From: Rhodospirillales bacterium
GTDB lineage: Bacteria > Pseudomonadota > Alphaproteobacteria > ATCC43930 > CGMCC-115725
Direction of reading: 5' to 3'
NCBI GenBank assembly: GCA_028288725.1
Contig: JAQGIC010000136.1
Coordinates: 28,086-92,085, forward strand
DNA length: 64,000 bases
Both the position numbers and the translations under genes were made by a program. The notes under the pieces are model-generated. The model ran no database searches. It was not told where the DNA came from and saw only the letters and a program-made list of their open reading frames with translations. Numbering within the stretch: position 1 is the stretch's first letter; every line of letters begins with the position of its first letter. Shown here piece after piece: positions 24,841 through 44,531 of this stretch.

Positions 24841-27800
24841 TCAGCTGCCGCCCGGTTTGCGCACCAGGTTCTGGTCCGCCGCCGAGGATTTCGCCGGGGC
24901 GGTCGATTTGAAGTCCTGCCGGCGGATCTCGTCGGTCACCGACCAGAGCTTGCCGCCCGGCGTCAGATACATCTTCTGCATTTCGGGCAAGGTGAAGGGG
25001 CGCGAGCCCAAGCGGCCGAACACGGCGATCTGGCCGCCGGTCTCATCGACCGCGCGGTCGCGATCCAGGCCCTTGGACAGCGCCAGCGCCGGGGCATCGG
25101 TCTTGCGCCAGGCGATCAGCTCGGGCTTCGGATCCGGGCTGAAGCCGTAGAAGTTCGGCTGGCTCGAGGGCGAGGTCAGCTGGATCACCTTCAGACCGGC
25201 CGCGCCATCGGCGACATAGGCGAACAGCGAGGCGTTCGTCGTGCCCACCACCACGTCATGGGCATCCTTGATCTGGCCGTCGGCGTTGAACAGCTGATAC
25301 AGCTTCGGCTGCTGCGGCCGCTCGACATCGATGATGGCGATGCCGTCGGCGCCGTCGGCGACATAGGCGAAGGTCCGGGCGACATAGACGCGGGCGGCAT
25401 GGGCCAGCGGCACCCGCGCCGCCGTCAGCTTCGGATGGGCCGGATCGGTCACATCGACGACGCGCAGGCCGCCGGCGTCGGTCACGAACAGATAGCGGAA
25501 CTGCAGCGCCGTCGCCTGGGCGGTCGGCAGGTCGATCACGTTCAGCAGCTTCGGCTGCAGCGGATCATGCATGTCGAGCACGACCACGCCCTTGTCGGCC
25601 GCGATATAGAAGATCGAGCCGGCGATGGTGATGTGCCGGGCACCGTTCAGGACGCCGTTCTCGTTCCAGGTCACGGCGCGCTTCAGGAAATTGTTGCGCG
25701 GCTCGCCGTCGGCGAGCGTATCGACATCGACCGCGATCAGGCCTTCGACCGAATCGGTGACGAAGGCATAGTGATAGATCTCGTCGAAGGCCTGTTCCTG
25801 ATTGTCCTTGCGCATCAGGTCGCCGACATTGCGGGAGGGCGCGATCGACTGGTTGGTCGGCAGCGCCATGCAGGTGGCGTTGGTCGTCGATAGATGGGTG
25901 TCGTGACCCAGTGCCGAGAACGGCGCGGTGATGATGCGCTCCGACACGCCCTTGTTGGCGATGGCCGCGATATCGAACACGCGGAAGCCGTCGCTGCCGG
26001 CAGCGGTATAGAGATATTCACCGCGCATCTGGATGCAGCGGGTGTCGCCGCCCGAATGGCTGTGCGATTCCGGCAGCTCCCGGCCGCGATCCTGGTGGGC
26101 CTTGAAATAATCCGGATAGGCGTAGCGCTGCAGGTAGCTGCCGATGACCGCCTGGGGCTCGTCCCACTCGGTGACCTTGACGCCCTCGACGCCGTCGCCG
26201 GTGCCGACCCAGGCGTTGTAGCCGACGAAATTCGGGAAATTCGTCCCGTACATCAGCAGCTGCGCCATGATCGCGTTGTTGTCGTCCTTGTCGGAGACAT
26301 GGCAATCGGTGCAGGTCTTGGTCTCGGTCGTGCGCTCCGTGTGCGGATAGTGCGGCGCGAAGGCCTGGGACGAGAAGCCGCTGGCCGCGATCGGCGGCTG
26401 CTGCACGTAGATCCGCTCACGGTTGATGTTGGTCGATGACAGGATCAGCGCCGAGGACGAGCGCACCGGCGCGATGATGTTGCCCTTGACCGTGGAATTG
26501 CGGCCCAGGAAGAACATGTCGTCGCGCGCGACCTGGGGATTGTAGGTCGCGTAATTGCGCGTCTCGCCGCCTTCGTAATGCTGCCGCGTGGTCTTCCAGT
26601 TCGCTTCGATCGGCAGATGGCAACCGGAACAGCTGGTGGTCCAGGATGTGTGACAGGTGATGCACATCATCTCGCTGTCTTTATGCGCCAGATCCGCCGA
26701 AGCGACGCCGGGACCCCATTGCATCGTGGTGCCCATGCTCATCAGCTTGGCCCGGGCCGCCTTGGCATTGTAGCGCGGGTTGGCGGGATCGACCGTGTCC
26801 TTGACCAGGCTGACCGCCCATTCCAGGCCGGGATTGACCGCGGAACGCTGGATCAGCTGGTTGCCGCGCCATTCGAACCGCAGCGAGCCGTCCTGGTTGC
26901 GGAGCGTGGTCAGATCGCGCCCGCCCGGCGGTGCGGCGGGGCCGCTGGTGTGCAGCGAGGGATAGGCGCGCGAGGTGCCGTGGCAATCGACGCATTGGAT
27001 TTCGATCGCCGCCGAAGCCTCGCCATAGATCAGCCCGTTGCCATGGCCGTCCTGGGAGAAATGGCAATCGACGCAATGCATGCCCTTGTCCATATGGATC
27101 GAGGACAGATGCACCGCCTTGTCGAATTTCTTCGGATCGTCCTGCGGCACGACCTTGCCGGCCGCATCGAGCAGATTGCCCTTGCGATCCTGCTTGAAAA
27201 TCGCGCGGAAGTTCCAGCCATGGCCGTGATAGTCGGCGAACTGGGTGTTCTTGAGCGTCGGGTTCAGCTCCGAGACATGCTCGAGGAACTCGACATTGGC
27301 CCATTTGCCGCGCGGTGCCGCACCCTCGGGATTGCGATCGTTCACTTCCCGGGTCGTGGCGGCATCGGGATATTGCTGCTTCTCCGGCCACATGCTGGGC
27401 GCGTCGGACTCATAGTCCCACATCGTGTAGCCCATGAAGCTGTTCACGAAGATGTTCGGCTGATGCATGTGGCAGACCATGCATTGGCTGGTCGGCATCG
27501 AGCGGGTGAACTGGTGCTGCAGCGGATGGCCGGACTCGCCCTTGGCGATGGTCGGGTCGACCGTGATCGTCTGGCCCAGGTTGCCGAATTTCGCGTAGGG
27601 GCCGGAATGGGCCGGATCGCGATCGTTGGCATAGATCACGTGACAGCCGGCGCAGCCGGAGCTGCGATAGTCGCCGGGCTGATCGTTCGTGCCCAGAAAC
27701 CACATCATCGGATCGTTGAGGCGGGTCTTGGTGATGTTGATGACCGGCACCGCGATGCGCAGGCCGGTGCCGGGACCGCGGTTGGACTGGTGGAAATCCG

Positions 27801-28650
27801 GCCGGCCATCCTCTTCGACGCGCTGGCTGTCGCCGCTGCTGTTCGGATTGCCGATCTCGGGGAATTCGGTGCTGATGTTGCGTCCGCCGCGCTCGAACAC
27901 GCGGAAGACGTCGCCGGGCGGGATCACTTCCCAGCGCGGCAGCGGCAGCAGCGCCGGCAGCACGCCGCGCTTCAGCATCGCCGCGTCCGGCACGACGGGG
28001 CTATGGATGCTGCCCGCCAGGCCCTCGTGCGTGTAGGCCTCGCCCAGCACGTAATTCTTCAGCGGCACGATGCCGTTGTTGTAGGACGCCCCGCCCCACA
28101 GCATGGCGCCGGTCGCCATCAGCGACCGCTCCGCCGCCTGGATGATGGGCAGATGGCAGGCGCCGCAGGCGTCGCGGTCGACCCGATAGTCGCTGGGATT
28201 GAGGAAGCGGACGAATTCCGGGCTTTCCTCGTTCAAGAGCGTATAGCTGCGCTCCGGCTTCTGGCTCGACGGCCAGCGCCAGGCCTCCTTGTGCTTCGGC
28301 ACGACATGCGCCGTTTCCATCGCCTTGCGATAGGCGGCGTCCGGATTATGCGCGATCGCCGGCGCATGGCCGGTGCCGTCGTCGGCCGGAGGCACCAGCG
28401 CGCCGACATTGGCGAGGCTGCCCGCGGGCCGGAACACCGCGGCATTGCCGCCATGGCAATCGGCGCAGCCGAGGATGACCGCCGGATTGACGTGCATGGA
28501 CGGCGCGTCGGACTTGGTGTGGCAGCTCTCGCAACCGGCGCTCTTGTCGTGGGCCGCCTCGACAGTCTGGACGCGCGGCGCCGGCGGCGCCTCCTCGGCA
28601 AATGCCGGGGCCGCTAGCAGCAGGAACGAGAGCGTCAGCCAAGCGCGCAT
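24841..28650 (-). CDS. Secreted decaheme cytochrome c with C-terminal LVIVD beta-propeller
   Basis: 1269 residues. Signal peptide (cleavage near AFA/EE) without a lipobox. Ten CXXCH heme motifs lie in the first ~760 residues: CESCH, CADCH, CGACH, CAGCH, CMVCH, two CVDCH, CITCH, CSGCH and CTDCH. From about residue 850 onward come repeats of the LVIVD type ([61 protein letters not shown]), expected to form a propeller. Last gene of the seven-gene redox operon, directly after an outer-membrane barrel gene (8-bp gap). A cell-surface terminal electron-transfer or substrate-binding role is inferred. No catalytic CXXCK motif is seen. Confidence 0.9.
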
Positions 28651-28658
28651 GGGCGGGG

Positions 28659-30392
28659 TCAGTACTTCAAGATGATGTTGGTCAGGACGGAATAGTAGAC
28701 CCGGGTCGTCGGTTCGCTGATGTACAGATCCTTGAAGCCCTGCCCCGGCACCAGCATCGCGCCGGACAGGCGCAGCACGACATTCTGGGTATCGAACGGA
28801 CGGTAGGTCACGGCGCTCGACAGGTCCCAGCCGATATCGTCATGGACGCCGGGTTGCTGGCGCAGCACGTTCAGCACGGTGGTATCGTTGAACCAGAGAT
28901 GGTTGGCGTTAAAGCTGACGCGCAGCTCCGGCAGGATGTCGAGGTCGGTGCCGACGCCGAACAGCGTCAGGCCCGGATTGATGAAGTTCGACTGGCCCTC
29001 GTCACCGGACGAGCGCAGCGACGGCAGCACGCCGTTCCGGCTCGACAGGTTGACGCCGCCGCCGCCGATCAGCGGGATCGCCTGCCGGATCCAATAGCTG
29101 GTGTCGGCGCCGGCGATCTGCGGGTTCTCCTGGATCGCGTCGAACCCGGTCTCGGTCTTGCCGTAGGGATCATGGTCGCCCGACGCGTAGAGCGCCGAGG
29201 CGCGCACCCGGATCCAGTCGAAATCGATCGACGGTTCCGCGGCGGCGAAATAGGCCCGGATGTTGGCCTTGCCCTGGCTGAAGGTGTTGTGGCTGTCGTT
29301 GCCGATCACGTAATAGGCCGAGGACGACAGGTTCACCCGGCCGAAATGGCCGTCGTTGTTCAGGCCGAAATAGGTGACGTTGTACTTGTGCGGCCGCTCG
29401 TCGCCGATGGCGGCGGGACGCACCAGAAACCCGTTCTTGTCGTAATAGAACGCCTGCTCGCGGTTCCAGTTATGCACCACGCTGAATTCAGTCGTCATGC
29501 CCTCGACCGGCAGATCCTGCACGAACAGATTGGCCGCCGCCGTATAGTCCCGGCGCAGCGGCTGGCTGAGGTCGTTCAGCCCGCTGTTGGTGTCCTTCTC
29601 GACCCGCTGGATGAATTCGAGATTGTACTGGAAGCGGTTGTTGGCGCGATTGCCGAACAGGCGGGCCGCCAGCTGGTCGTCCTGGAACAGAAAGCCGCGG
29701 AAATCCAGATTGATCGGCTGGATGCCGACCCGGATGGAGTCGAAATCGAAGCGATCGGAGACGTTGCGCAGGTGATAGTCGAGGAAGGCTTCCTGAATGC
29801 CGATGAACGTATCGTTCCGGTTTGTCCCCTTCGACGGATCGGCCCGCAGCAGGCCCAGCTCCTCGACATGGGCGTAGTTATAGTTGATCGCCGGGGTAAA
29901 GCGGAATTCGAACTCCGGCGGCATGAAGGTCGTGTCGCCCTTGGTGATGGACAGGCTGGGCAGCAGCGTCTCGTTCACCACCAGCTGATCGGGCTTGCCG
30001 AACTTGTCGTTCTCGCCGGGGCGCGCCGTGGTCACCGCACCGGACGGCACCGGAAAGGACCGCGGCTCGACCAGCGTGTCCGACAGCACCTCCAACGTAA
30101 CGAACCAGTCGTCGAACACCGGGCGATCGCCCTTGAGCGTGCTCTGGGCGTAGGGGTTGAGCGGATTGTCCTTCACGCCCAGTGTTTCGATGATCCGGTT
30201 TCGATCGGGCAGCGGCAGGATTTCGTAAGTCAGCGACGGCGAGGGCGCCGCGATGGCGCCATTGTCGACCGGAGCAGGCTCGGGTGCCGCCGGCGTGGTC
30301 CCGGGGCGTTGGAATTCCTCCTGCGCCGACGCGACCGTGGGCGCAAGCAGGACGCCAAGCGTCAGCAGGGCGGAACGCAGCCTCAAGCTCAT
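28659..30392 (-). CDS. Outer-membrane beta-barrel protein (porin-like) of redox operon
   Basis: 577 residues from the ATG at 30390-30392, which overlaps the upstream stop (ATGA). Signal peptide ends near TVASAQ. The rest is rich in alternating amphipathic strands with aromatic girdles (FEFRFTPAINYNY, RFQYNLEFIQRV, KYNVTYFGLNNDG, VRVRASALYASGD). The protein ends NIILKY, the aromatic C-terminal signature of BAM-inserted barrels. No TonB box, plug or heme motif. Next to a secreted decaheme cytochrome, it may form the pore of a porin-cytochrome conduit like MtrB/PioB, although no sequence motif proves homology to those. Confidence 0.8.
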   Translation of the reverse strand: MSLRLRSALLTLGVLLAPTVASAQEEFQRPGTTPAAPEPAPVDNGAIAAPSPSLTYEILPLPDRNRIIETLGVKDNPLNPYAQSTLKGDRPVFDDWFVTLEVLSDTLVEPRSFPVPSGAVTTARPGENDKFGKPDQLVVNETLLPSLSITKGDTTFMPPEFEFRFTPAINYNYAHVEELGLLRADPSKGTNRNDTFIGIQEAFLDYHLRNVSDRFDFDSIRVGIQPINLDFRGFLFQDDQLAARLFGNRANNRFQYNLEFIQRVEKDTNSGLNDLSQPLRRDYTAAANLFVQDLPVEGMTTEFSVVHNWNREQAFYYDKNGFLVRPAAIGDERPHKYNVTYFGLNNDGHFGRVNLSSSAYYVIGNDSHNTFSQGKANIRAYFAAAEPSIDFDWIRVRASALYASGDHDPYGKTETGFDAIQENPQIAGADTSYWIRQAIPLIGGGGVNLSSRNGVLPSLRSSGDEGQSNFINPGLTLFGVGTDLDILPELRVSFNANHLWFNDTTVLNVLRQQPGVHDDIGWDLSSAVTYRPFDTQNVVLRLSGAMLVPGQGFKDLYISEPTTRVYYSVLTNIILKY

Positions 30393-32311
30393 TTCCCCGT
30401 GCACAGGTTTTGCACGCTGCTGTTGAGCAACGGCGTGGTCGGGCAGTTGACGTAGATCGGCCGGGCGCCATGGGTGGCGAAAAAGCTGACGCGCGCTTCG
30501 GGCCTGACGTGGCCGAGGCCGTTGCCGAGGTCGATGCCCGCGTTGTAGAGGCCGAGGAAGGCCGTCATGTCGTCCTGGTCGACGCCGTCGCCGGAGACGC
30601 CGACCCCACCGATCAAGGCATTGCCGCGGTAGACCCCGAAGCCGCCGGGGAAGATCTGCAAGCCGTCGGCCAGGATCGGCTGGCCGGACGCCGAATTCGG
30701 GCCTGCGGGCACGATGCCGCGGGTGCAGGCGGCGCCGACGTCGGGTGTGCCGGTCGACAGGAACTGGGCATGCCGGACCAAGTCGCCTTGGATGAGGGCT
30801 TCCTGCAGGCCGTCGGAGAAGGGCGTGTTGGTCGACACCGGCGCGCCGAACGGGCCGTATGGCGTGTTGCCGATGCCGTCGGGATAAGTGTCCCGGGCCA
30901 GGTTGCCGATCGCGCGCGCGCTGAAGCCCAGCGTCCCGTTCATGATGTTCGCGCCGTAGAAGCTTTGGGCCTGCGTCAGATAGCTCGTGAAGCTCGGCAG
31001 CGACAGCACGTCGTGGATATACGGGCCCGACATGAGCAAAGCACTGCGCGCCTTCTGCACAGAGACGTCGATGCCGAAGACCGGTGCGTCCGGATTGGTG
31101 ACGGAACCCAGGATCTCGCCATTGGCATCCACGACCGAGATGGTCACGGCGACCTGGCTGCCCAGCGGATTGCGGATCGCGGCGCGCGCCTTCAGCGTGA
31201 GCTGATAGGCCTCGCGCAGGATCGTGGCGACCTCAAGGGCGGACAGCCCGCCGGGGATGCGGCCCGCGCGGGCCGGATAGCGCACCGAGCCGTCGGCGTT
31301 CACCATCAGTAGCGGGGGTGTCACGGTGCTGTAGGCGCCGGACTGATCGGGCGTCAGGCCCGAGGCCACGGTGCCATGTTCCTGTCCGCCGAGAAAACCC
31401 TGCGATGCGCTGTAGTAGCCGTTGACGCTGACGAGCACGCCCTGGCTCAGCGCCGCCGTCAATGTCGCCTGGGCCGGGTTGCTCAGGATATCCGACGTCA
31501 CCGCATCGGAATAGCGCAGCGTCAGACCGCCGGCCGAGATGCGGTCGGCCCGGATCGACGCCGGCGCGCTGAAGCCGCTCGTGGCTGCGAGCGCGATGAT
31601 TTCATCCGTGCTCTTGTCGACATTGAAGATATTTTCGTCGTCGCCGTAGATGCCGTCGGCGATCACGCCGACGCCGCCGACGTTCTGGCCGTTCTTGTAC
31701 AGTGGGAACCCGCCCGGATCGGCGGAAAGGCCGAAGGGCGAGCGCTTCGGCCCGAGGCTGAGCGCGGTCGGGTCGACGACGACGCTGCGCCGGTTGACGT
31801 CGGAACAGGGCAATTGGCTGAACTGCACGCCATAGAGCGGACCGGACGGAGCGTTCAGCTGACCGGGGTTGAAATGGTCCTGAACGATCTGGCTGGCGGT
31901 CCGGGTCGAAAAGGCGTTGCCGCTCGATGACAGATAGGCGCCGGTGATGGCCTTGGTGATCACGGCGCCGGTATCGATGATCGGCACGCCGTTCAGGCCC
32001 GTGTTCGGGCCGTGGCTGTTCGGCGCGACGAAAACCACGCGCAGGTTCGGAAAGAAGAACGGCAGGTTGGCCCCGTTCATGCGGTAGACCGCGAGCACGT
32101 TGCCGTCACGGTCGACCACGGCGATCGTGGCGGGGGCATTGCGCCGGCTTGCTTCCAGGGCGGCCTGGGCGATGATCTGCTGCACGTCGGTCGGCAGCAG
32201 ATGCTCGGCCCGGGCCGCCGGACCGATCAGCGCGGCGCCGAGGCCGATCATGCCGCAGAACCACGTTGCCCGCGAATGGGTGCGCGTTCGCGAATCAATG
32301 CACCTGGGCAT
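30389..32311 (-). CDS. Secreted double GlcG/HbpS-like (DUF336) heme-binding protein
   Basis: 640 residues from the ATG at 32309-32311, overlapping the FHA-cytochrome stop by 17 bp. A signal peptide ends near GPAARA. Two GlcG/HbpS-type domains follow: the first with TIAVVDRDGNVLAVYRMNG and GGVGVIADGIYGDDE, the second (from ~350) with AVTISVVDANGEILGSV and GGVGVSGDGVDQDDM. HbpS, a member of this family, binds heme and senses redox stress outside the cell. It contains no CXXCH. In this operon it may scavenge, store or chaperone heme for the cytochromes, or sense redox state. Confidence 0.85.
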   Translation of the reverse strand: MPRCIDSRTRTHSRATWFCGMIGLGAALIGPAARAEHLLPTDVQQIIAQAALEASRRNAPATIAVVDRDGNVLAVYRMNGANLPFFFPNLRVVFVAPNSHGPNTGLNGVPIIDTGAVITKAITGAYLSSSGNAFSTRTASQIVQDHFNPGQLNAPSGPLYGVQFSQLPCSDVNRRSVVVDPTALSLGPKRSPFGLSADPGGFPLYKNGQNVGGVGVIADGIYGDDENIFNVDKSTDEIIALAATSGFSAPASIRADRISAGGLTLRYSDAVTSDILSNPAQATLTAALSQGVLVSVNGYYSASQGFLGGQEHGTVASGLTPDQSGAYSTVTPPLLMVNADGSVRYPARAGRIPGGLSALEVATILREAYQLTLKARAAIRNPLGSQVAVTISVVDANGEILGSVTNPDAPVFGIDVSVQKARSALLMSGPYIHDVLSLPSFTSYLTQAQSFYGANIMNGTLGFSARAIGNLARDTYPDGIGNTPYGPFGAPVSTNTPFSDGLQEALIQGDLVRHAQFLSTGTPDVGAACTRGIVPAGPNSASGQPILADGLQIFPGGFGVYRGNALIGGVGVSGDGVDQDDMTAFLGLYNAGIDLGNGLGHVRPEARVSFFATHGARPIYVNCPTTPLLNSSVQNLCTGK

Positions 32312-34040
32312 CGGCTTCCTTCCAGAGGTTTGCGGCGGTCTGGCCCTTCTTCGGGAGCATCGGCATCTCATGTTGATGGAAATCGTGACAGGAGACGCAG
32401 GTCGACGCGACCTTGCCCGTGACAGGCGCTTCGCCGACATGGCAGTTGCGGCAGCTCTCGATGCCGGGCAGCACGACCTGGTCCAGTTGAGCGGTCCGGA
32501 TATCGGCGTGGCAGCCGGCACATTCCATCGTGTCGTGTTTGGCGTGCGTGAAGCGCGCCTTGGGCAGGAAGGTCGGGTTGACGACGACCTGCCGGATCTT
32601 CCAGGCCAGCGGATCGGCGCCGGGGGCCGGCATCTCGAAGGTATGGCAGGTGCCGCAGGCCGCCTTGGCGACCGACGAGGCCATGGCGGCGGCGGCCTGG
32701 CTGCGCGCCATGGCGGCCGGCAGTTCGGCGGGCATCGGCTCCTGGCCGGGCTTCGCGAACAAGGGATCGACCTCGCGGCTGAAACTCTCGCCCGACAGGA
32801 CGGCCTGGGAATAGAAACCCAGAATACGGCTGGCGAGCTCGTCGGGCGCGCCATGCGGCAGTCGCCATTCCGGATGCTTCGGCTCGAACTTCAACGCGTG
32901 GCATCCGGCGCAGTTTTCGGCAAACGTCGGCATCGTCATCCTGCCGCCGCCCCCCGGTTGGGGCTTGTGACATTCGGCACAACCCAACACCTCGGTCTTG
33001 CCCTCGGTATTCTTGATGCCCTCGGGGATCAGATGCTTGCCATGGGTGAAACGCAGGTTGGTCTGGCTGAGGATCGAGACGCCCGCGCCCATGCGCACGC
33101 GCTTGGTCATGCCGGTCGACGCATCGCTGATCACCGTCGGCGCGAATTCGGGATGGGCCGATCCGAAATCGCGGACGTCGGCCAGCGTGGAATTCTGGGC
33201 CGTGCCCTTGATGTTCGCGTGGCAGCCGGCGCAATCGGCCTCGGCGTTGCTGGTCGCCTGGGTGGCGCCCTTGTGCTCGCGATGGCAATTCTCGCAGGAC
33301 TGCTTGGCCAGGTCGACCGCGGGAAAGGCATGGGCGTCGGCATGCTGTCCCGTCGTCTGATGGCAGGACAGACAGGCCTCGTTGCGGACCGAGACGAACG
33401 GCTTCTCATGGCAGAGTGCACAATCCTGGCCGAAGGCGGCATGGGCGTTCGACATATGGCCGACGATCCACAGGCGATCCGGTCGGAAATTCGACGGGGC
33501 CGACCGCGCCGGCGCCATCGACGCCGCCTGGGTCGAAACCGGCTCGGCCGACCGCGGCATGACCGGCGACAGGAGCGGCGCCAGCAGCATGGTCAGCAGG
33601 ACCACGAGCGCGATCGCCCAGGACCAGCGCCGAAGCGGCGGCAACTGATAGCTGAGCGCCTGATCGTAGGCCTTGTAGACTTCGGCTTCCCCCAGCCCAT
33701 CCGCCGGGCCGGCCTCGATCAGCAGGATGGGGCCGGTCTCGCCCGGCGCCAGCAGCGTCAGCGCATGGGCGCCGATGGTCACCTGGTCGCCCGCATGGGC
33801 GAGCGTCGCCGTCTGAACCGTTTGGCCGTTCTGGACCAGGGACGCGCCCTCGATCGCCTCGACCGTGAAGCCGCTTTCCATCGGCCAGACCAGCGCGTGG
33901 CGATAGCGGACCCGGCGATCTGTCAGCCGCACCACGGAGGAGGGCGCGCGGCCGATGGAAAACTCGCCATCGATCGCCAGATCCAGGGAGGGGTCGGCGG
34001 GGGCGCCCTTGCGTGGGCTGAAGCGGATCAACGTCGCCAT
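32295..34040 (-). CDS. FHA domain - transmembrane - decaheme cytochrome fusion
   Basis: 581 residues from the ATG at 34038-34040. Residues ~22-97 form an FHA-like domain: FSIGR (Gly30, Arg31), YRHA (His48) and an NG turn at 71-72; the usual Ser of the S-x-x-H motif is replaced. A single membrane helix follows at ~140-160 (WAIALVVLLTMLLAPLLSPV), then a periplasmic part with ten CXXCH motifs (CALCH, CLSCH, CENCH, CAGCH, CAECH, CAGCH, CGTCH, CAGCH, CRNCH, CVSCH). The topology puts a phosphothreonine-recognition fold in the cytoplasm and ten hemes in the periplasm. It is probably the relay between the membrane cytochrome b and the outer-membrane module. Confidence 0.9.
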   Translation of the reverse strand: MATLIRFSPRKGAPADPSLDLAIDGEFSIGRAPSSVVRLTDRRVRYRHALVWPMESGFTVEAIEGASLVQNGQTVQTATLAHAGDQVTIGAHALTLLAPGETGPILLIEAGPADGLGEAEVYKAYDQALSYQLPPLRRWSWAIALVVLLTMLLAPLLSPVMPRSAEPVSTQAASMAPARSAPSNFRPDRLWIVGHMSNAHAAFGQDCALCHEKPFVSVRNEACLSCHQTTGQHADAHAFPAVDLAKQSCENCHREHKGATQATSNAEADCAGCHANIKGTAQNSTLADVRDFGSAHPEFAPTVISDASTGMTKRVRMGAGVSILSQTNLRFTHGKHLIPEGIKNTEGKTEVLGCAECHKPQPGGGGRMTMPTFAENCAGCHALKFEPKHPEWRLPHGAPDELASRILGFYSQAVLSGESFSREVDPLFAKPGQEPMPAELPAAMARSQAAAAMASSVAKAACGTCHTFEMPAPGADPLAWKIRQVVVNPTFLPKARFTHAKHDTMECAGCHADIRTAQLDQVVLPGIESCRNCHVGEAPVTGKVASTCVSCHDFHQHEMPMLPKKGQTAANLWKEADAQVH

Positions 34041-34044
34041 CGGG

Positions 34045-34914
34045 CTACCAGAAATAGAAGACGGCGAGGACATGGATGCCGAGAGCGACCAGCAATCCGA
34101 CGGTGAGCGGCAGATGGATGACCCGCCAGATCTGCATCAGGACCCGGTAGCGCTGGTCGCGGCGCAGCCGCGCCACGGCAAGCGCCCGGTTGGTCAGCGC
34201 CTGGACCAGCGGCATCACATTGGCCTGGTCTGCGGAATAGGTCTTTCCGACCAGGGCGCGCAACCGGGCGATGGCCGCGCGGGCAGGCGCCTCCAGGGTC
34301 GGGCTCACCCGTTCGCGACTGCTCAGGTCGCGGAACCGAAACGCCGGCAGCGTGCAGGTCGCCTGATAGACCAGCGCCGCCGTCTCGTCATCGAAGCTCA
34401 TCGCCAACTCGCGGCATTCGAAATCGAGCGCCACGATCGCCTCGATCAAGGACTTATACGGCGTGCCGTTTCGATTCTTCGTCATCGCCGCGGGGTAGCG
34501 GCGAAACGCGTAGAGCCCGAAGGCGCCGCTCAGGATGACGACGACCATCAGGCCGTAGGCCAGAGTGTGGACGTTCCAGCCGAACCGAAAGGCGGTATGC
34601 AGCGTCGCCGTCACCACCAGCGCCAGCCCCAGGTAGACATGGGCCGACAACCATTCCTCCAGGAGGAACATCTTCGGTCCATATTGCCGGCGGCGAATAC
34701 CGAACCAGCCGAGCCAGACGATCAGCGCCAGGCCGATCGTTCCCAGCAGATAGCCGACCCAGGTGCCGCCGTTGGCGATGCCGCCCGCCGGCGCATGCAG
34801 CGCGTAGAGCAGGATCGAGACCGCCACCAGCAGCAGCGCGATCTTGCCATAGAGTCCGCGCCGATAGGTCAGGACGGACCGATGGATCTCCGGGGGCGGG
34901 GGGACCGCGGCCAT
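34045..34914 (-). CDS. Diheme cytochrome b-like integral membrane protein
   Basis: 289 residues from the ATG at 34912-34914, overlapping the previous stop (TGATG). Membrane helices at about 23-40, 53-73, 88-108, 115-137 and 264-288, with a ~120-residue hydrophilic segment before the last. Helix 3 has His92 and His106, helix 5 has His267 and His281. Both pairs are 14 residues apart, the classic spacing for two stacked b hemes. It would carry electrons across the inner membrane from the cytoplasmic flavin/iron-sulfur protein to the periplasmic cytochromes. The family is not identified beyond this. Confidence 0.78.
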   Translation of the reverse strand: MAAVPPPPEIHRSVLTYRRGLYGKIALLLVAVSILLYALHAPAGGIANGGTWVGYLLGTIGLALIVWLGWFGIRRRQYGPKMFLLEEWLSAHVYLGLALVVTATLHTAFRFGWNVHTLAYGLMVVVILSGAFGLYAFRRYPAAMTKNRNGTPYKSLIEAIVALDFECRELAMSFDDETAALVYQATCTLPAFRFRDLSSRERVSPTLEAPARAAIARLRALVGKTYSADQANVMPLVQALTNRALAVARLRRDQRYRVLMQIWRVIHLPLTVGLLVALGIHVLAVFYFW

Positions 34915-37343
34915 CACGAGCCGAGCTTGTTGGGCAACTGACCCTCACGGATCAGCGCCATATAGATGTCCGGCGCGGTGCGCGTTGCGGCCCCGGTCGG
35001 ACAGGCGCGCACGCAGGCCGGGCCGCCGCCGACGTCCTTGCACAGGTCGCATTTGAGCGCGAGCTTGCGATGGGGTTCATGGGCCGCTTCGGGCTTGCCC
35101 AGACCCAGCATCGCCGCCAGCCAGCCGACCAGGCCGGTGCTATGGCCCGTGTGATCTTCAAGATAATCCATCTTGATCACGCCATAGGGGCAGTTGTTGG
35201 CGCAGTTCGAACAGCCGATGCAGGTGTCGTTGATGAACACTTCGCCGCTCGAAGACCGGGTGATCGCGTCGACCGGACAGTCGCTCATGCAATGCGGCTG
35301 CTCGCAATGGCGGCAGGCGGTCGGAATATGGATCGACGCGAAAGTGGGGCCGGCCTCGCGGTTGAGACGGGCGACCCCGCCATGGGTGCTGGCGCAGGCC
35401 GTCTCGCAATTGTTGCAACGGGTGCAGAGCGACTCGTCGATCACCAGCGCGTTGGTCGACTCGCCGATGCCCTGGGACACCAGGAACGAGATGGCGCTGC
35501 TTGCGGCCGCCACGTCGGCCGTCTTCTCGGCGCCGATCAGGTCCTGTTTGATCTTGGCGTCGAACTGCGTCTGCATCTGAGCGCGGAAGAGCTCGCGCAG
35601 TTCCGGATGGCGGACCATGAAGGCCGTCATGGCCTCGGCGCTGATGCGCACGACTTCGCTCAGGATGGCGGCGCGGACGGTCGCGGCGCGGCGCGCGTCG
35701 GGATCCAGCAATCCGCGCTCGCCGACCAGGCCGCCGGCCGGGATGTAGTTCAGCGCCTGATGCTTGCCGTCGACGTCGCGGCCGACGGTCGCCGAGCCGG
35801 AGCGGATGATGTAGAGCGCATCGCAATGCTCGCCCTCGGTGATGATCGCTTCGTTCGCCTTGTAGCGCTTCAGCTCCGCGGCGGCGACCAGCTCGGCCAC
35901 TTCCTCGACCGGCAATCCGCGGCCGAGTGCCGTATGGATCAGGCGGCGAACGGTGGTCTCGTCGATGACTTCCTTGACCGCCTCGACCGAGCTGCGCAGA
36001 CGCAGGATGGAGCGCCGGGGCGATTCAACCAGCAGGGTCTCGCCGACAGCCACGACCGTGGCGCTGCGCCGGCGGCCCGAGACCAGACCCAGTTCGCCGA
36101 AGAATTCGCCGGCACCGATATGGACCATCTTGGCCGGGTTCTTGTCGTCGAGCACGACGCCGACCTGGCCCTCGACGATGTTGAACAGCGAACTCGTATA
36201 GTCGCCACGGCGGAAGATGGTGGCGCCGGCTGCGACGCGATGGACCGAGCTGTCCAGCATCATTTCGCGCAACTGCAGCGTGGTGAGGCCGCTCAGCATC
36301 GGCACGGCGGTGCGCAGCGTCTCCAGCGCGCGGCCGACCGGCCAGCCCGGGAAGGCCTGGGAGAAGCGCTGGGTCAGCAGCGGCTCGTCGGCCGGGGCGA
36401 CATCGATGCCGCCCAGGCGCAGCGCCACTTCATGGCCCTGGTTGATCGCCTGCTTGATCAGCGTGTAGCCGGCGAGCGCGCCGATGATATAGAGGCCCTT
36501 GACGTTGGATTCGTAGGTTTCCGACAGCTCCGGCACCGCGGCCGGATCGGCACTCGGAAACACGATGCCGCAGCTTTCGATGAATTTGCGCGGCGGGATG
36601 GCGCCGACGCGGGCGATGACCCGGTCGACCAGCACTTTCACGTCGCCGCTCGGCGTCTGCAGCACGACCCCGTCGTCATCGACCCCGATCGGCATGGAAT
36701 CGTGGAACACCTGGGTCAGGCCCGAGCGGCAGGCGCGCTCGATATCGGCCAGGTTGCCGGGCTTCGCGCGCATGAATTCCGGCGCGCGGTTGATGATGGT
36801 GACTTCGTTATGATCCGCCAGCGCCAGGGCGTTTTCGATACCGGCATCGCCGGCGCCGACGACCATGATCCGTTCGTTATGGTATTCGTCGGGATCGTCG
36901 AGTTGGTATTGCACCCAGGGCCGGTCCTGGCCCGGGACGCCGAGCTGGCGCAGGTTGCCCTGCATGCCGATCGCCAGAATGATCTTCTTGGCGGTGACGA
37001 TCTCGCCGCCCTTGACCTCGATTTTGAAGCCGCCGTCCTGGCCGCCCACGCCGACGACTTCGGCACTATAGCGGACATTGATGCCGACCTCGGCCGCGCG
37101 GTCGTTCCAGATACCGAGGATGCCTTCGCGCACGCCGGCGTCGAAGGCGAGCTCGCTCTGCAGCGGCAGGCGCAGCGGATGCGCCATCACGACCTTGCCC
37201 TTCTGATACTTGAAGATCGTATCGGACAGGTGGGCCGAGCGCTCCAGCAAGATATGCGACAGGCCGTTCCTGGCGCAGGTCACCGCGGCGGAAAGTCCGC
37301 CGGGTCCCGAACCCAGAATGGCGATGTCAAATGCGTCGGTCAT
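34914..37343 (-). CDS. Flavin/NAD(P) oxidoreductase - two cNMP-binding domains - four [4Fe-4S] cluster fusion
   Basis: 809 residues from the ATG at 37341-37343 (ATGA overlap with the upstream stop). Residues 1-310: thioredoxin-reductase-like two-dinucleotide fold with GSGPGG (11-16) and NAD(P) motif GAGDAG (163-168), but without the CXXC disulfide. Residues ~355-450 and ~480-580: two cyclic-nucleotide-binding domains with phosphate cassettes FGELGLVSGRRRSATV and GERGLLDPDARRAATV. Residues 640-782: sixteen cysteines arranged for four [4Fe-4S] clusters (C640-C650, C677-C689, C708-C718, C765-C781), like DmsB/PhsB electron-transfer subunits. No signal peptide, so cytoplasmic. Likely takes electrons from NAD(P)H and passes them to the membrane cytochrome, gated by a cyclic nucleotide. 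Confidence 0.9.
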   Translation of the reverse strand: MTDAFDIAILGSGPGGLSAAVTCARNGLSHILLERSAHLSDTIFKYQKGKVVMAHPLRLPLQSELAFDAGVREGILGIWNDRAAEVGINVRYSAEVVGVGGQDGGFKIEVKGGEIVTAKKIILAIGMQGNLRQLGVPGQDRPWVQYQLDDPDEYHNERIMVVGAGDAGIENALALADHNEVTIINRAPEFMRAKPGNLADIERACRSGLTQVFHDSMPIGVDDDGVVLQTPSGDVKVLVDRVIARVGAIPPRKFIESCGIVFPSADPAAVPELSETYESNVKGLYIIGALAGYTLIKQAINQGHEVALRLGGIDVAPADEPLLTQRFSQAFPGWPVGRALETLRTAVPMLSGLTTLQLREMMLDSSVHRVAAGATIFRRGDYTSSLFNIVEGQVGVVLDDKNPAKMVHIGAGEFFGELGLVSGRRRSATVVAVGETLLVESPRRSILRLRSSVEAVKEVIDETTVRRLIHTALGRGLPVEEVAELVAAAELKRYKANEAIITEGEHCDALYIIRSGSATVGRDVDGKHQALNYIPAGGLVGERGLLDPDARRAATVRAAILSEVVRISAEAMTAFMVRHPELRELFRAQMQTQFDAKIKQDLIGAEKTADVAAASSAISFLVSQGIGESTNALVIDESLCTRCNNCETACASTHGGVARLNREAGPTFASIHIPTACRHCEQPHCMSDCPVDAITRSSSGEVFINDTCIGCSNCANNCPYGVIKMDYLEDHTGHSTGLVGWLAAMLGLGKPEAAHEPHRKLALKCDLCKDVGGGPACVRACPTGAATRTAPDIYMALIREGQLPNKLGS

Positions 37344-38662
37344 GGCAGCGACCGGCCGACCGCGCCGGCGGCGGCAACGAATTTGGCCGGCTGGTAGGCC
37401 TCTTCCTTCTGGGTCGCGGCATAGCATTGGTCGAGCGCGCTCTTCAGCGCCCCGGCCTGCTTGGCATCGATCAGATTATCGGTCTTAAGCGTGTAGATGA
37501 TCGAGGCGAAAGCCATGGTCGCCTGTTCGGCCGCGGCATAGTCGACGTAGTCGCCGGCGGTGCCGCGGGCGACCAGGGCCGCGACCATCGCCTTCATGTC
37601 GTCGCGGGTGAAGTCGTGGGCCGCGAAGGCCTCGGCCAGCTTATGGGCAATCTGGCCGACCGCCGCGGCGTCGGTCCGGGGCACGCCCTTGCCTTCCGAC
37701 AGCGCGCCGTGCAGTGCCAGCACCGCCTTCTCCAGTTCGGCGCCCGCGGCGGGATCGATGCGCGCGGCGATGGCGCGCAGCATGACCGCGTTGGCGTCGT
37801 TCAGATGCGGCAGGCCCGGCCCGAGCCCGCTGCTGGCCCGCTTTTCCCAGCGGAGCGAGCTGGTCGGATGATGGCAGGCGTCGCAATCGAAGAACACCAG
37901 CTCCGGAAACAGGCCGTCGCCCTTGTGCGCCGGATCCTGCAGCGAGGTCGTCAGGGTTTCGAGCGCCACCGCCTGGCCGACCGCCCAGAACTGGACGCCG
38001 GCGGCGACGGTCTTGCGCTTCTTATAGGTCGCATCGATCTGGTAGTGCGCCGGCTCGATCTGGGTGAAGGTCTCCAGCTCGAACGGCATGCGCGGATGTC
38101 CGGCGCCCATGATGCGATGGGTGACGAAGCGCGAGCCCGAGCCGACATGGCACCCGACGCAGAGTTTGGCGCGCGCCAGCGGATCGTCCGTCGGATACAA
38201 CCCGAACTCGCCGACCAGCTGGGCGTGGGGAATCTTGCCGCTCGCGTGTGCGCCCAGCCATTTCTGGCCGGCGCCATGGCAGGCCTCGCAGCCGACGCCA
38301 TCGGAAATCTGGAACTGGACGCCCCGCTGTTCGGCCGGAACATTGTCGGCATGGCAATCGAGGCAGACCTGGGCCTTTTCCGCCGCGGGGATGCCGAGAT
38401 TGCGCGCGATGCGCTTGCCAAGCTCGCCTTGCAGCGCCGTGAAGGCCTTGGCGTGCTTGTCCAGGCGCTGCCAGGTCAGATATTCGTTTTGCAGAACGCC
38501 GGTGTTCTTGACCCCGGCCGTATTGCCGTGGCACGGGCCGCCGGCGCAGGAGGCGACGCCCAGATGCACGTCGGTGGACGGGGGCGTCTGCGCGATCGCC
38601 GGCACCGTCGCCAGCAACAGTGCTGCGACCAGCATCCCCAGAAACGTGCTTGGTCTCTTCAT
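37340..38662 (-). CDS. Periplasmic pentaheme cytochrome c (c554-like)
   Basis: 440 residues with a signal peptide ending near PAIAQ. Heme motifs: an atypical CX4CH (CAGGPCH, about residue 39) and four CXXCH (CLDCH, CEACH, CVGCH, CDACH). The segment GAGHPRMPFELETF resembles the multiheme cytochrome c554 group. The C-terminal third lacks hemes and is helical. First gene of the seven-gene redox operon; its stop overlaps the next ATG. It could be a soluble periplasmic shuttle or an electron entry/exit enzyme. Confidence 0.88.
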   Translation of the reverse strand: MKRPSTFLGMLVAALLLATVPAIAQTPPSTDVHLGVASCAGGPCHGNTAGVKNTGVLQNEYLTWQRLDKHAKAFTALQGELGKRIARNLGIPAAEKAQVCLDCHADNVPAEQRGVQFQISDGVGCEACHGAGQKWLGAHASGKIPHAQLVGEFGLYPTDDPLARAKLCVGCHVGSGSRFVTHRIMGAGHPRMPFELETFTQIEPAHYQIDATYKKRKTVAAGVQFWAVGQAVALETLTTSLQDPAHKGDGLFPELVFFDCDACHHPTSSLRWEKRASSGLGPGLPHLNDANAVMLRAIAARIDPAAGAELEKAVLALHGALSEGKGVPRTDAAAVGQIAHKLAEAFAAHDFTRDDMKAMVAALVARGTAGDYVDYAAAEQATMAFASIIYTLKTDNLIDAKQAGALKSALDQCYAATQKEEAYQPAKFVAAAGAVGRSLP

Positions 38663-39561: not shown

Positions 39562-40629
39562 ATGCAAGGAAACATCGCCGAAACGTCTAAGGGCCGGCAG
39601 AAGAAAAGTGACTCTGCCGTGAAGACCATCAATCTCGCCCTCCAGGGTGGCGGCTCCCACGGCTCCTTTACCTGGGGCGTGCTGGACCGTTTGCTCGAGG
39701 AAGATCGGCTCGCGATCGAAGGCATCACCGCCACCTCGGCGGGCGCCATGAATGCCGCGGTTTACGCCTATGGATTTGCGATCGGCGGCCGCGAGGGCGC
39801 CCGCACGAAACTCGCCGAGTTCTGGAAGCGCGTCAGCGACGCCGCCGCCAAGGGACCGCTGCAGCCGAGCTGGTGGGACAAGAAGACCAAGAACTGGGCG
39901 TTGGAAAATTCGCCCGCCTTCATGATGATGGACATCGTCTCGCGCCTGATGTCGCCCTATGAATTCAATCCGACCAACGCCAATCCGCTGCGCGATTTGC
40001 TCCTGCAGTCCGTCGATTTCGAGGTGCTTCGAAACACGGACTCCCCGCTGAAGCTCTACCTGTCGGCCACCAATGTGCGGACCGGCAAGGTCAAGGTGTT
40101 CGACAAGAAGGAAATGACGGTCGATGCCGTGCTGGCGTCCGCCTGCCTGCCTTTCATGTTCCATGCGGTCGAGATCGATGGCGAGGCTTACTGGGATGGC
40201 GGCTACATGGGCAATCCCGCCCTGTTCCCGCTGATCTATCATTGCGACAGTCCCGATGTCGCGATCGTCCACATCAATCCGCTGGAACGTCCCGAACTGC
40301 CGAAGACGGCACGGGATATTCTGAACCGGATCAATGAGATCAGCTTCAATTCTTCGCTGATGCGCGAAATGCGGGCGATCAGCTTCGTGACCTCGCTCAT
40401 CGACAGCGGCAAGCTCGACGGGGCCGGGATGAAGAACGTCTATGTTCATTCGATTTCCGGCGAAGCGGAACTGCTGAAGGTGGGGGCGACCTCCAAGCTC
40501 AATGCCGACTGGGAATTCCTGACCCATCTGTTCCAAGCTGGCCGCTCCTATGCCGACACGTGGCTCGAGACGAATTGGGAGCATCTCAACGTTCGCTCCA
40601 GCGTCGATATCCACGATCAGTATCTGTAA
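39562..40629 (+). CDS. Patatin-like phospholipase/esterase
   Basis: 355 residues, ATG with GAGGA 8 bases upstream. Oxyanion loop LALQGGGSHGSFTWGVLD (about 26-43), nucleophile elbow ITATSAGAMNAA (catalytic Ser), and catalytic Asp in YWDGGYMGNPALFPL. No signal peptide, so cytoplasmic. Patatins hydrolyse phospholipids; related proteins act on intracellular polyhydroxybutyrate. The two acetoacetate-decarboxylase paralogues downstream make a C4-oxoacid/PHB link worth testing but unproven. A strong hairpin terminator follows. Confidence 0.9.
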   Translation: MQGNIAETSKGRQKKSDSAVKTINLALQGGGSHGSFTWGVLDRLLEEDRLAIEGITATSAGAMNAAVYAYGFAIGGREGARTKLAEFWKRVSDAAAKGPLQPSWWDKKTKNWALENSPAFMMMDIVSRLMSPYEFNPTNANPLRDLLLQSVDFEVLRNTDSPLKLYLSATNVRTGKVKVFDKKEMTVDAVLASACLPFMFHAVEIDGEAYWDGGYMGNPALFPLIYHCDSPDVAIVHINPLERPELPKTARDILNRINEISFNSSLMREMRAISFVTSLIDSGKLDGAGMKNVYVHSISGEAELLKVGATSKLNADWEFLTHLFQAGRSYADTWLETNWEHLNVRSSVDIHDQYL

Positions 40630-42962: not shown

Positions 42963-44531
42963 ATGAACGCTGTCGATCTCGGTAATTTTATAGAATTTCT
43001 CGTTTTCGGCATCGGCATTATTTCCGGCATCATCGCTTTATTCTGCGTCTTCCTGCGGCTACAAACGAAGAAAATGCCGACGATCCTGTTCGGATCGAGC
43101 AGTTCCGTTTGGTTTCTGTCGGCGGGATTTCTTTCCAATCAATTGTTTACGACACTGCTGTTCCCGGATTCGATCGGGCGGTTGTCGCCTGGGCTTCAGG
43201 TCGGGGTCGGCGACATCTTCGTGTCGCTCGCCTGCCTGTTCCTCGCCTTCACGCTGAACGCGATCCTGAAGCGCTTCGTCTGGTACGGCAGCCTCAGTGA
43301 GGGAACCCAATCCCGCGTTCCCAACATCCTGATCGCGCTGATCCGGCTCGCCATCTATGCCGGCGCGCTGATGGTGATCTTCTCGCTGGTGTTCCATCGC
43401 GACGTCACGGCGATCGCCGCGACGTCGGGCGTGGTCGCGATCGTGCTGGGCTATTCCCTGCAGCCGACCTTGTCCGAGATCTTCGCCGGCCTGGCCTTGA
43501 ACCTGTCCCATGCGTTCAGGATCGGCGACAGCGTCCAGCATGACGGCGTCTGGGGCATTATCCAGGAGGCCAATTGGCGCTCGGTCAGCATGCGCACATA
43601 CGAAGGCACGCTCGTCGTCGTTCCGAACACCAAGATGGCCACGACCAGGCTGACCAATCTGGATCTGCCGAACCACAATATGCGGCACCATATCCGTTTC
43701 ATCGTCGATATCGATGTTCCGCCCGGCCGCGTGCAATCCGTGGCGCTCGCCGCGATGAATGCCTTGCCGCATGTCCTGAAGTCGCCGCCGGCGATGCTGC
43801 TGTTCAAGGACATGACGGATCAGGGCGTCGCTTATGAAGCGATCTTTTGGCATTTCAATCCGAACGTCTACATTCTGCGCCGCGATGAAGTCGGCGTGGC
43901 GCTCTGGTACGCCTTTCGCCGGGCCGGCATTCCCTTCTCCGTGCTGCGCCACAATCTGGCGACCCATGCCGACGCGCGCCCGAACGTACCGCCGTTCGAC
44001 GTGAACCAATATCGCCGGCGGCTCAGCGAAGTCCTGCACCAGTCGCCGCTGTTCCAGTGCTTCCAGGACGATGCCATCGAACAGCTGGTCGAGCACCATC
44101 GGCAGCTGGTCTATGGCCCGATGGAGATGGTCGTCCGCCAGGACGATGCCGGCACCTCGATGTTCGTCATCCTGGACGGCGCCGTGACGGTGCTGCACGA
44201 GACCGCGGACGGGAGCGAGCGTGAGGTCGCGACGCTCGGGACCGGCGAGAGCTTCGGCCATATGTCGCTGATGACGGGTGCCACGCGCAGCGCCACCGTC
44301 CGCGCGGTCGGACATCTCGTGCTGGCCGAGATCGAAAAGGATGCGATCGGCGCATTGCTGGGGGCCAATCCCGCCGCGGTGGAAATCATCGCTCAGGAAA
44401 TCATGCGCCTCGATGCCGCCAATATGCGGCTGAGGGAACTCGAGCAGGCCGCCTCGACCGAGGGCGGGCAGCCGGGACCGCTCGGCAGCATCGCCAAACT
44501 GATGCGCGGCTTCTTCCTGTTGGGCGGTTAG
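42963..44531 (+). CDS. MscS-family channel with C-terminal cyclic-nucleotide-binding domain
   Basis: 522 residues. Four N-terminal membrane segments (about 10-30, 40-65, 75-100, 120-145), then the MscS pore helix/beta domain (TSGVVAIVLGYSLQPTLSEIFAGL, then DGVWGIIQEANWRSVSMRT and VVPNTKM). Residues ~360-480 form a cNMP-binding domain with the cassette FGHMSLMTGATRSATV; the Glu that normally contacts the ribose is His, while the phosphate-binding Arg is kept. Proteins of this build are known as bacterial cyclic-nucleotide-gated channels. Ligand and gating are inferred. Confidence 0.92.
   Translation: MNAVDLGNFIEFLVFGIGIISGIIALFCVFLRLQTKKMPTILFGSSSSVWFLSAGFLSNQLFTTLLFPDSIGRLSPGLQVGVGDIFVSLACLFLAFTLNAILKRFVWYGSLSEGTQSRVPNILIALIRLAIYAGALMVIFSLVFHRDVTAIAATSGVVAIVLGYSLQPTLSEIFAGLALNLSHAFRIGDSVQHDGVWGIIQEANWRSVSMRTYEGTLVVVPNTKMATTRLTNLDLPNHNMRHHIRFIVDIDVPPGRVQSVALAAMNALPHVLKSPPAMLLFKDMTDQGVAYEAIFWHFNPNVYILRRDEVGVALWYAFRRAGIPFSVLRHNLATHADARPNVPPFDVNQYRRRLSEVLHQSPLFQCFQDDAIEQLVEHHRQLVYGPMEMVVRQDDAGTSMFVILDGAVTVLHETADGSEREVATLGTGESFGHMSLMTGATRSATVRAVGHLVLAEIEKDAIGALLGANPAAVEIIAQEIMRLDAANMRLRELEQAASTEGGQPGPLGSIAKLMRGFFLLGG

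What the first reader, a model, noticed from the sequence alone, without database searches (positions are those of the whole stretch)
24841..38662. Seven-gene coupled operon for a possible new NAD(P)H-to-outer-membrane electron conduit
Seen: seven minus-strand genes linked by overlaps or gaps of at most 8 bp encode (in order) a pentaheme cytochrome, a flavin/NAD(P)-2xcNMP-4x[4Fe-4S] fusion, a diheme cytochrome b, an FHA-TM-decaheme protein, a double GlcG/HbpS protein, an outer-membrane barrel, and a decaheme-LVIVD protein: 25 c-heme motifs in all. Known: porin-cytochrome conduits (Mtr, Pio, Pcc) combine a barrel with periplasmic and surface multiheme cytochromes. Inference: this is a complete chain from cytoplasm to surface with built-in cyclic-nucleotide and FHA input. 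I know no named system with this set. Direction (export to solids, or uptake from donors) is open.
Basis: partly seen in the sequence, partly recalled or inferred. Interest (0 to 1): 0.95.

Follow-up and report, generated by a model that had tools for sequence, protein, structure and literature searches.

The report
Widespread NADPH-fed outer-membrane electron chain
Seven linked genes that many Proteobacteria keep together encode a flavin/iron-sulfur protein, a membrane cytochrome, three cytochromes with 25 heme-attachment motifs and a predicted outer-membrane barrel, which would likely carry electrons from NADPH inside the cell to its outer membrane under predicted cyclic-nucleotide control, a respiratory side-path that our literature searches did not find described.

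Summary
Seven minus-strand genes lie at 24841-38662, with 24 CXXCH and one CX4CH motif. They form one evolutionary unit. Of 31 relatives with at least 9 kb on both sides of the LVIVD gene, 22 have all seven; the barrel is in 31. Heme numbers are nearly invariant. In 398 evenly drawn Pseudomonadota genomes, all 11 with the LVIVD cytochrome have the barrel and the fusion protein, in three cases far apart or on another contig. The set splits into an inner-membrane module (fusion, cytochrome b, FHA-decaheme) and an outer-membrane module (HbpS, barrel, LVIVD-decaheme). Two genomes of one genus fuse the first two proteins. Cyclase, phosphodiesterase-like or PP2C/FHA genes lie near some copies. The barrel is predicted to be an 18-strand AlgE-like protein, not MtrB/PioB, so electron passage through the outer membrane is not shown. 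Best reading: NADPH-driven electron export; main rival: a periplasmic reductase served by a solute pore. No description was found in our searches.

The parts
37340..38662 (-). g1: predicted periplasmic pentaheme cytochrome (4 CXXCH + 1 CX4CH), Cytochrome_C554 domain, signal-peptide-like N-terminus
   Evidence: hydrophobic segment 6-24; motif set identical in 52 of 52 full-length orthologs
34914..37343 (-). g2: flavin/NAD(P) reductase (YpdA/TrxR-like, without CXXC in the flavin domain) - two cNMP-binding domains - four [4Fe-4S] sites
   Evidence: 16 Cys invariant in 59 of 59; cNMP pocket residues E417 58/59, R426 59/59, E542 50/59, R552 59/59
34045..34917 (-). g3: membrane diheme cytochrome b, two HX13H stretches
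   Evidence: H93, H107, H268, H282 (and H117) invariant in 55 of 55; weak Ni_hydr_CYTB match; naturally fused to g2 in L108 and L109
32295..34040 (-). g4: N-terminal FHA domain - one TM helix - decaheme cytochrome (predicted FHA in, hemes out)
   Evidence: 10 CXXCH in 47 of 48 and ten further His conserved in at least 94% of 48 orthologs
30389..32311 (-). g5: HbpS/GlcG-like protein; start uncertain (ATG 32311 or 32251); signal-peptide-like N-terminus here, lipobox in about half of orthologs
   Evidence: HbpS-like 80.1 bits, 3 stretches; lipobox pattern followed by Gly/Ser in 33 of 61 orthologs
28659..30392 (-). g6: predicted 18-strand outer-membrane barrel with a long conserved loop at mature residues 380-450
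24841..28650 (-). g7: decaheme cytochrome with C-terminal LVIVD beta-propeller, signal-peptide-like N-terminus, no lipobox
   Evidence: lowest best-segment identity 61% among the 80 best loci

Best explanation
The seven genes encode a two-module electron chain that is predicted to take electrons from cytoplasmic NADPH, pass them across the inner membrane through a diheme cytochrome b to multiheme cytochromes, and would likely deliver them to an acceptor at or outside the outer membrane, gated by a cyclic nucleotide (likewise predicted). Inner-membrane module: g2 would oxidise NADPH at its flavin and feed four 4Fe-4S clusters; g3 would carry one heme near each membrane face (from its four invariant His and the positive-inside pattern); g4 is predicted to be an inner-membrane decaheme whose FHA domain faces the cytoplasm. 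Periplasm: g1 would shuttle electrons. Outer-membrane module: g7 with barrel g6 and g5 would make the last step. Shown by sequence: gene set, motifs, co-conservation, separability of the two modules, natural g2-g3 fusion, and signalling genes near some copies. Inferred: NADPH rather than NADH (R186, conserved in 57 of 59, and R192, in 48 of 59, resemble the recalled thioredoxin-reductase motif); flow outwards; gating by cNMP; final acceptor. Export is favoured because moving electrons from the inner to the outer face is driven by both redox potential and membrane potential, whereas NADP+ reduction by this route would be uphill on both counts for any but a very low-potential donor.
For: Linkage: 22 of 31 fully covered loci (from the 80 best g7 loci) hold all seven genes; g6 31, g5, g3 and g4 30 each, g2 29, g1 24. 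Co-occurrence in the same 398 genomes, host included: g7 in 11 (E up to 1e-50), g6 in 12 (1e-20), g2 in 15 (1e-60); all g7 and g6 genomes have g2 (Fisher p 1e-18 to 1e-20; genomes are related, so p is nominal). In G305 and G440 g2 is over 600 kb from g7 and in G487 on another contig, yet kept. Fusion: g2+g3 in one ORF of about 1120 aa in G128 and G245, both of one genus. Cofactor residues invariant; g4 has ten motifs and ten further conserved His, as an all-bis-His wire needs. Intact cNMP pockets. Signalling neighbours: SpdA/CpdA-like gene in 9 of 93 examined sequences, within 260 bp of the g4 match in six and 3.4-6.9 kb away in three; cyclase match in 5 of 93, CHASE2-cyclase by Pfam in the three tested; PP2C in 10 of 83 loci, nine of them with an FHA gene. 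ccmI-like genes in 9 (L043 query) or 11 (L048 query) of 83 and a ccmF/ccmI set in the window.
Against: The barrel model is 18-stranded and closest to the alginate exporter AlgE and OprD-type porins; 22 of 59 members weakly match DESULF_POR1, 'outer membrane homotrimeric porin' (best E 1.2e-6). No MtrB/PioB match in the family or the genome. g7 has no clear lipobox and its heme part modelled badly (mean pLDDT 64.9), so its contact with the barrel is untested. g7 is the best conserved of the seven in the loci used (median 65% against 31-54% for the others; but these loci were chosen by g7 similarity), whereas multiheme cytochromes of Geobacter and Shewanella are reported to mutate fast (PMC12977616, abstract); that fits an enzyme with a fixed substrate better than a promiscuous surface wire. 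L087, with at least 9 kb on both sides, has only g5-g6-g7. Three of 15 g2 genomes lack g6 and g7 matches, one of them 76% complete. FHA core residues are not strictly kept (R31 42/48, H48 31/48). The phosphodiesterase-like proteins fall below both NCBIfam cut-offs. No control was run for how often signalling genes lie near random loci.
Confidence: 0.58

Rival explanations
1. Periplasmic reductase system: g7 is an NAD(P)H-driven multiheme reductase for a specific soluble substrate, g6 is a solute porin that lets the substrate in, and nothing crosses the outer membrane as electrons.
For: AlgE/OprD-type 18-strand fold and weak porin HMM matches in 22 of 59; no lipobox on g7 in nearly all orthologs; g7 the most conserved protein in loci chosen by g7; weak similarity to cytochromes of the selenite/tellurite reduction operon (ExtM 58.6 bits against a cut-off of 800).
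Against: g7 has fifteen conserved non-motif His in 48 rows, enough for bis-His ligation of all ten hemes, and the window copy has no CXXCK motif; g5 has a lipobox pattern in 33 of 61 orthologs, as expected for an outer-membrane complex; PMC6148476 assigns 18 transmembrane domains to ExtB, part of a conduit needed for electrode growth (passages read).
Confidence: 0.27
2. Electron uptake: an external donor feeds g7, g1, g4, g3 and finally NAD(P)+ or the quinone pool.
For: Multiheme conduits can run either way; PioAB and Mto systems take electrons up (starts of abstracts seen in the listings).
Against: The N-side flavin/Fe-S end has no ion-pumping partner in the operon, so NAD(P)+ reduction would be uphill in redox and in membrane potential unless the donor is very low-potential (inference).
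Confidence: 0.07
3. g3 is a quinone-reactive cytochrome b and g4-g7 are fed from the quinol pool; g2 only adds or withdraws electrons.
For: g3 matches Ni_hydr_CYTB weakly; the three families of inner-membrane entry cytochromes of bacterial EET known in 2018 (CymA, CbcL/MtrH/MtoC, ImcH) are quinol oxidases or quinone reductases (PMC6295460, abstract).
Against: g2 and g3 are fused in two genomes of one genus and adjacent in the window, and the His pairs fit a straight transmembrane route; no quinone site was tested.
Confidence: 0.08

Closest known systems
MtrCAB / PioAB / MtoAB porin-cytochrome conduits
   Same: barrel plus decaheme cytochrome encoded side by side
   Different: barrel not of the MtrB/PioB family and 18 rather than 28 strands (28 predicted for MtrB in PMC5971433, passages read); no lipidated surface cytochrome recognised; inner-membrane feed is an NAD(P)-type flavoprotein
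Geobacter Ext conduits (extABCD, extHIJKL)
   Same: 18 transmembrane domains in ExtB; ExtH is a non-cytochrome lipoprotein beside a barrel and a pentaheme (PMC6148476, passages read), compare g5-g6-g1; weak ExtM/ExtN/ExtO similarity of g7
   Different: no match over any NCBIfam Ext cut-off among those listed; g7 carries an LVIVD propeller; inner-membrane module differs
CymA, CbcL/MtrH/MtoC, ImcH inner-membrane entry points
   Same: membrane-bound cytochromes that feed periplasmic multiheme cytochromes; CbcL-type proteins also pair a cytochrome b with multihemes (recalled)
   Different: those families use the quinone/quinol pool (PMC6295460, abstract); here the partner is an NAD(P)-binding flavin/Fe-S protein with cNMP domains
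NADPH oxidases / ferric reductases
   Same: NAD(P)H, flavin and two b hemes stacked across a membrane with paired His about 13 residues apart (family features recalled)
   Different: g3 had only Ni_hydr_CYTB and DUF3300 in Pfam at E up to 1, no ferric-reductase family; acceptor would be a decaheme cytochrome, with Fe-S clusters in between
AlgE alginate exporter
   Different: 13% identity; Alginate_exp Pfam reached by only 4 of 59 members at E up to 1 and not by the window copy; no alginate gene among the seven

Membership tests
MtrCAB/PioAB porin-cytochrome conduit | barrel of the MtrB/PioB family (TIGR03509) | tested here: not met
   no match in any of 59 g6 members at E up to 0.1 nor in the host genome at E up to 10
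MtrCAB/PioAB porin-cytochrome conduit | DmsE/MtrA-type decaheme (TIGR03508, cut-off 192.2) | tested here: not met
   g4 25.0 bits, g1 21.9 bits, g7 not listed at E up to 0.1
MtrCAB/PioAB porin-cytochrome conduit | OmcA/MtrC-type surface cytochrome (TIGR03507, cut-off 209.3) | tested here: not met
   g1 15.6 and g4 13.5 bits, g7 not listed at E up to 0.1
Outer-membrane electron conduit in the sense of PMC6148476 | (i) multiheme periplasmic c-type cytochrome | tested here: met
   g1 and g7 have 5 and 10 heme motifs and signal-peptide-like N-termini (read by eye, no predictor run); location itself not tested
Outer-membrane electron conduit in the sense of PMC6148476 | (ii) integral outer-membrane protein with transmembrane beta-strands | tested here: met
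   predicted only: 18-strand barrel model, pLDDT 85.2
Outer-membrane electron conduit in the sense of PMC6148476 | (iii) outer-membrane lipoprotein with a redox cofactor | tested here: inconclusive
   g5 has a lipobox pattern in 33 of 61 orthologs but not in the window copy; whether it holds heme is unknown
ExtM / ExtN / ExtO (selenite/tellurite operon) | score above the NCBIfam cut-offs | tested here: not met
   g7: 58.6 of 800, 22.8 of 200 and 23.3 of 200 bits
CymA (NapC/NirT) entry cytochrome | Cytochrom_NNT domain PF03264 | tested here: not met
   g4 not listed at E up to 1; g1 10.8 bits against 24.1
AlgE alginate exporter | PF13372 Alginate_exp | tested here: inconclusive
   window none; 4 of 59 members, best E 1.1e-6; fold similar
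YpdA/Bdr or thioredoxin reductase | redox-active Cys in the flavin domain | tested here: not met
   no Cys of the window g2 in residues 1-639 is conserved, best C258 at 54%; TIGR04018 131.3 bits against 339.9

The most novel reading that the evidence does not exclude
An ancient, common and so far undescribed extracellular electron-export system of Proteobacteria, many of them presumed aerobes (recalled), that bypasses the quinone pool: NADPH is oxidised directly, a cAMP-class nucleotide and phospho-threonine signals open or close the flow, and a propeller-bearing decaheme at an AlgE-like barrel hands electrons to the outside, a bacterial counterpart of an NADPH oxidase that reaches through two membranes.
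Probability: 0.35. Interest if true: 0.93.

Novelty: new variant of a known kind. Interest (0 to 1): 0.8.

Why it matters
The inner-membrane entry cytochromes of bacterial extracellular electron transfer known in 2018 were all quinol oxidases or quinone reductases (PMC6295460, abstract). A direct nucleotide-fed, nucleotide-gated route would be a different way to dump or donate reducing power. Records titled as strains of Duganella, Steroidobacter, Limnobacter, Parahaliea and Oceanibacterium carry it, so the idea can be tested now.

Tried and rejected
MtrB/PioB barrel: no match. In the structural lists no MtrB chain appeared among the rows shown; that absence is not evidence.

g7 as a member of a solved family: profile against the PDB gave 0 hits at E up to 0.1. 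Its AlphaFold model is confident mainly in the propeller, and Foldseek's listed rows were mostly propeller proteins, so nothing is claimed for the heme domain.

T2SS export of g7: GspF-like genes lie in 8 of 83 loci and the host has a GspD over cut-off, but GspF-type proteins are widespread and matches go down to 33%; kept as a lead only.

g7 lipobox: the first pattern flagged none of the N-termini printed (copies with over 90% coverage); a looser pattern on upstream-extended translations hit 6 of 80, three inside hydrophobic cores and three in stretches that look non-coding (my reading); a partial copy in L020 shows a possible FTAC box. Not used as evidence for lipidation.

G246 lacked g7; its contig ends about 330 bases after the g6 match, so this is probably a cut, not a loss. 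In L110 g3 was not detected between g2 and g4 (an 895-bp stretch); L106 showed g2 alone. g1 was not found in 7 of 31 fully covered loci, L087 among them, and may lie farther away or be diverged.

My working note said the phosphodiesterase-like gene is next to g4 in nine loci; the check shows this for six only, the other three lie 3.4-6.9 kb away.

Spread: a g7 tree puts the alphaproteobacterial rows on one side of a branch (support 99) with 6 class-label changes in all, least possible 2 (labels taken by me from record titles, 8 of 80 rows without one), so mostly old and vertical with some mixing.

Selection: the 80 loci are the best-scoring of 589, so linkage and identity figures lean towards close relatives.

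Literature: searches listed no paper whose title or abstract start describes this gene set (open-licence library; listings only, except passages of PMC9226611, PMC5971433 and PMC6148476 and abstracts of PMC12977616 and PMC6295460). PMC9226611 (Thioclava, passages) reports no protein with more than 8 heme motifs, so it is not this system.
Full report
OBSERVATION. Pfam confirms every domain named except the barrel, which has no Pfam match, and the cytochrome b, which matches Ni_hydr_CYTB below cut-off. The 25 heme motifs are 24 CXXCH plus one CX4CH in g1; shuffled sequences never reach more than one CXXCH.

ONE UNIT. tblastn of the seven proteins in these 80, many of them contig ends, found g7 in 80, g6 in 75, g2 in 62, g5 in 62, g1 in 59, g4 in 59 and g3 in 57. 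In the 31 with at least 9 kb on both sides of g7: g6 31, g5 30, g3 30, g4 30, g2 29, g1 24, all seven in 22; exceptions include L087 with only g5-g6-g7 and L059 without g5. Where at least 1.6 kb precedes g7, g6 is found in 66 of 66. Gene orders differ, so the association has survived rearrangement. The same draw of 398 genomes, host included, was searched three times: g7 in 11, g6 in 12, g2 in 15, nested within each other; three g2 genomes have no g6 or g7 match. In G305 and G440 the g2 gene is over 600 kb from g7, in G487 on another contig. Among 119 genomes of family f14, 41 have g7, so the trait is patchy. Among 99 genomes (host and 98 relatives), 8 matched g7, host included, G064 only at 26-29% and G049 by pieces.

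ANATOMY. g2: a YpdA/thioredoxin-reductase-like flavin and NAD(P) domain without CXXC, two cNMP domains with conserved Glu and Arg of the phosphate-binding cassette (cassette recalled), and 16 invariant Cys. g3: histidine pairs H93/H107 and H268/H282, each 14 residues apart; hydropathy shows four clear helices, and the H93-H107 stretch lies between two of them but did not pass the threshold; basic flanks put H93 and H268 on the cytoplasmic side (inference). g4: FHA, one TM helix, ten heme motifs and ten other His conserved at 90% or more. g1: five motifs and six other conserved His. g7: ten motifs and fifteen other conserved His. g5: lipobox pattern followed by Gly/Ser in 33 of 61 orthologs, not in the window copy. 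g6: 18 strands, short turns on one side and long loops on the other, and a conserved loop at 380-450 (strand count is mine from the listed elements, leaving out the 3-residue strand 299-301).

TWO MODULES. g2 to g4 occur as a separate block in f14 genomes (g3 undetected in one) and without g5-g7 nearby in G099, G128 and G245; in the last two, of one genus, g2 and g3 are one polypeptide. This supports direct electron transfer between them and suggests that the inner module can serve other partners.

REGULATION. A calcineurin-like phosphoesterase, best matching SpdA (139.5 of 400 bits) and CpdA (84 of 225), was found in 9 of 93 examined sequences: within 260 bp of the g4 match in L080, L082, L099 and L110-L112, and 3.4-6.9 kb away in L084, L091 and L093. 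L094, of the same arrangement, has none. A cyclase match was found in 5 of 93 (L043, L084, L091, L093, L106; the L091 and L106 matches are partial); CHASE2-cyclase was confirmed by Pfam in the three tested, L043, L084 and L093. The host itself has 8 cyclase-domain places, none on the window's contig. PP2C occurs in 10 of 83 loci, after g1 in those whose maps I read; the two FHA-protein queries matched 10 and 11 of 83, nine in PP2C loci each time, and one of the others is g4's own FHA (Pfam on examples). No random-locus control was run and the loci within each clade are related, so these counts are suggestive, not statistical proof.

MECHANISM AND DIRECTION. The simplest chain is NADPH, FAD, 4x[4Fe-4S], heme b (inner face), heme b (outer face), g4, g1, g7 at the barrel. 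Export is favoured thermodynamically; this is inference. The final acceptor is unknown. Known conduits differ in barrel family and in feed (PMC6295460 abstract; PMC6148476 and PMC5971433 passages). An 18-domain barrel has a precedent in ExtB (PMC6148476), so the strand count does not exclude a conduit.

AGAINST. The barrel resembles solute/polysaccharide pores; g7 is better conserved than the other six (median 65% against 31-54%, in loci chosen by g7), unlike what is reported for Geobacter and Shewanella multihemes (PMC12977616 abstract); g7 localisation is unknown. I therefore give 0.58 to export towards the outer membrane or beyond and 0.27 to a periplasmic reductase.

NOVELTY. New variant of a known kind: envelope-spanning electron export, but with an inner-membrane module not matching the recognised families tested. 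No description was found in ten literature searches of an open-licence library (calls listed under Tried and rejected).

Noticed in passing
window 44554-48601 (-): A second cytochrome c maturation set (ccmF/NrfE-type 46607-48601 and ccmI 44554-46281 over cut-off, ccmH/NrfF-like 46140-46619 below it) lies 6-10 kb upstream of the operon; the host has another, apparently fuller ccm locus (L114, genes named by eye, its ccmF 53% identical). It may be a dedicated heme lyase for the CX4CH motif of g1.
   Followed up: partly
window 42963-44531 (+): MscS-type channel fused to a cyclic-nucleotide-binding domain (matches below NCBIfam cut-offs), between the ccm set and the operon.
   Followed up: no
L042:5148-6080 and 14 other loci: Protein with a signal-like N-terminus and a C-terminal biotinyl/lipoyl-like domain between g4 and g5, matched in 15 of 83 loci; role unknown.
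   Followed up: partly
L108, L109: A small gene with one CXXCH precedes the g2-g3 fusion and a nine-CXXCH g4, without g5-g7 in the stretch: possibly another output for the inner-membrane module.
   Followed up: no
L113:7209-9557: A 783-aa protein with twelve CXXCH, 25-33% identical to parts of the heme region of g7, beside ccm-like genes; a distant relative without propeller match.
   Followed up: no
window 39562-40629 (+): Patatin-like protein (label recalled) with weak similarity to CBASS phospholipases (28.3 bits against a cut-off of 200); probably ordinary.
   Followed up: no
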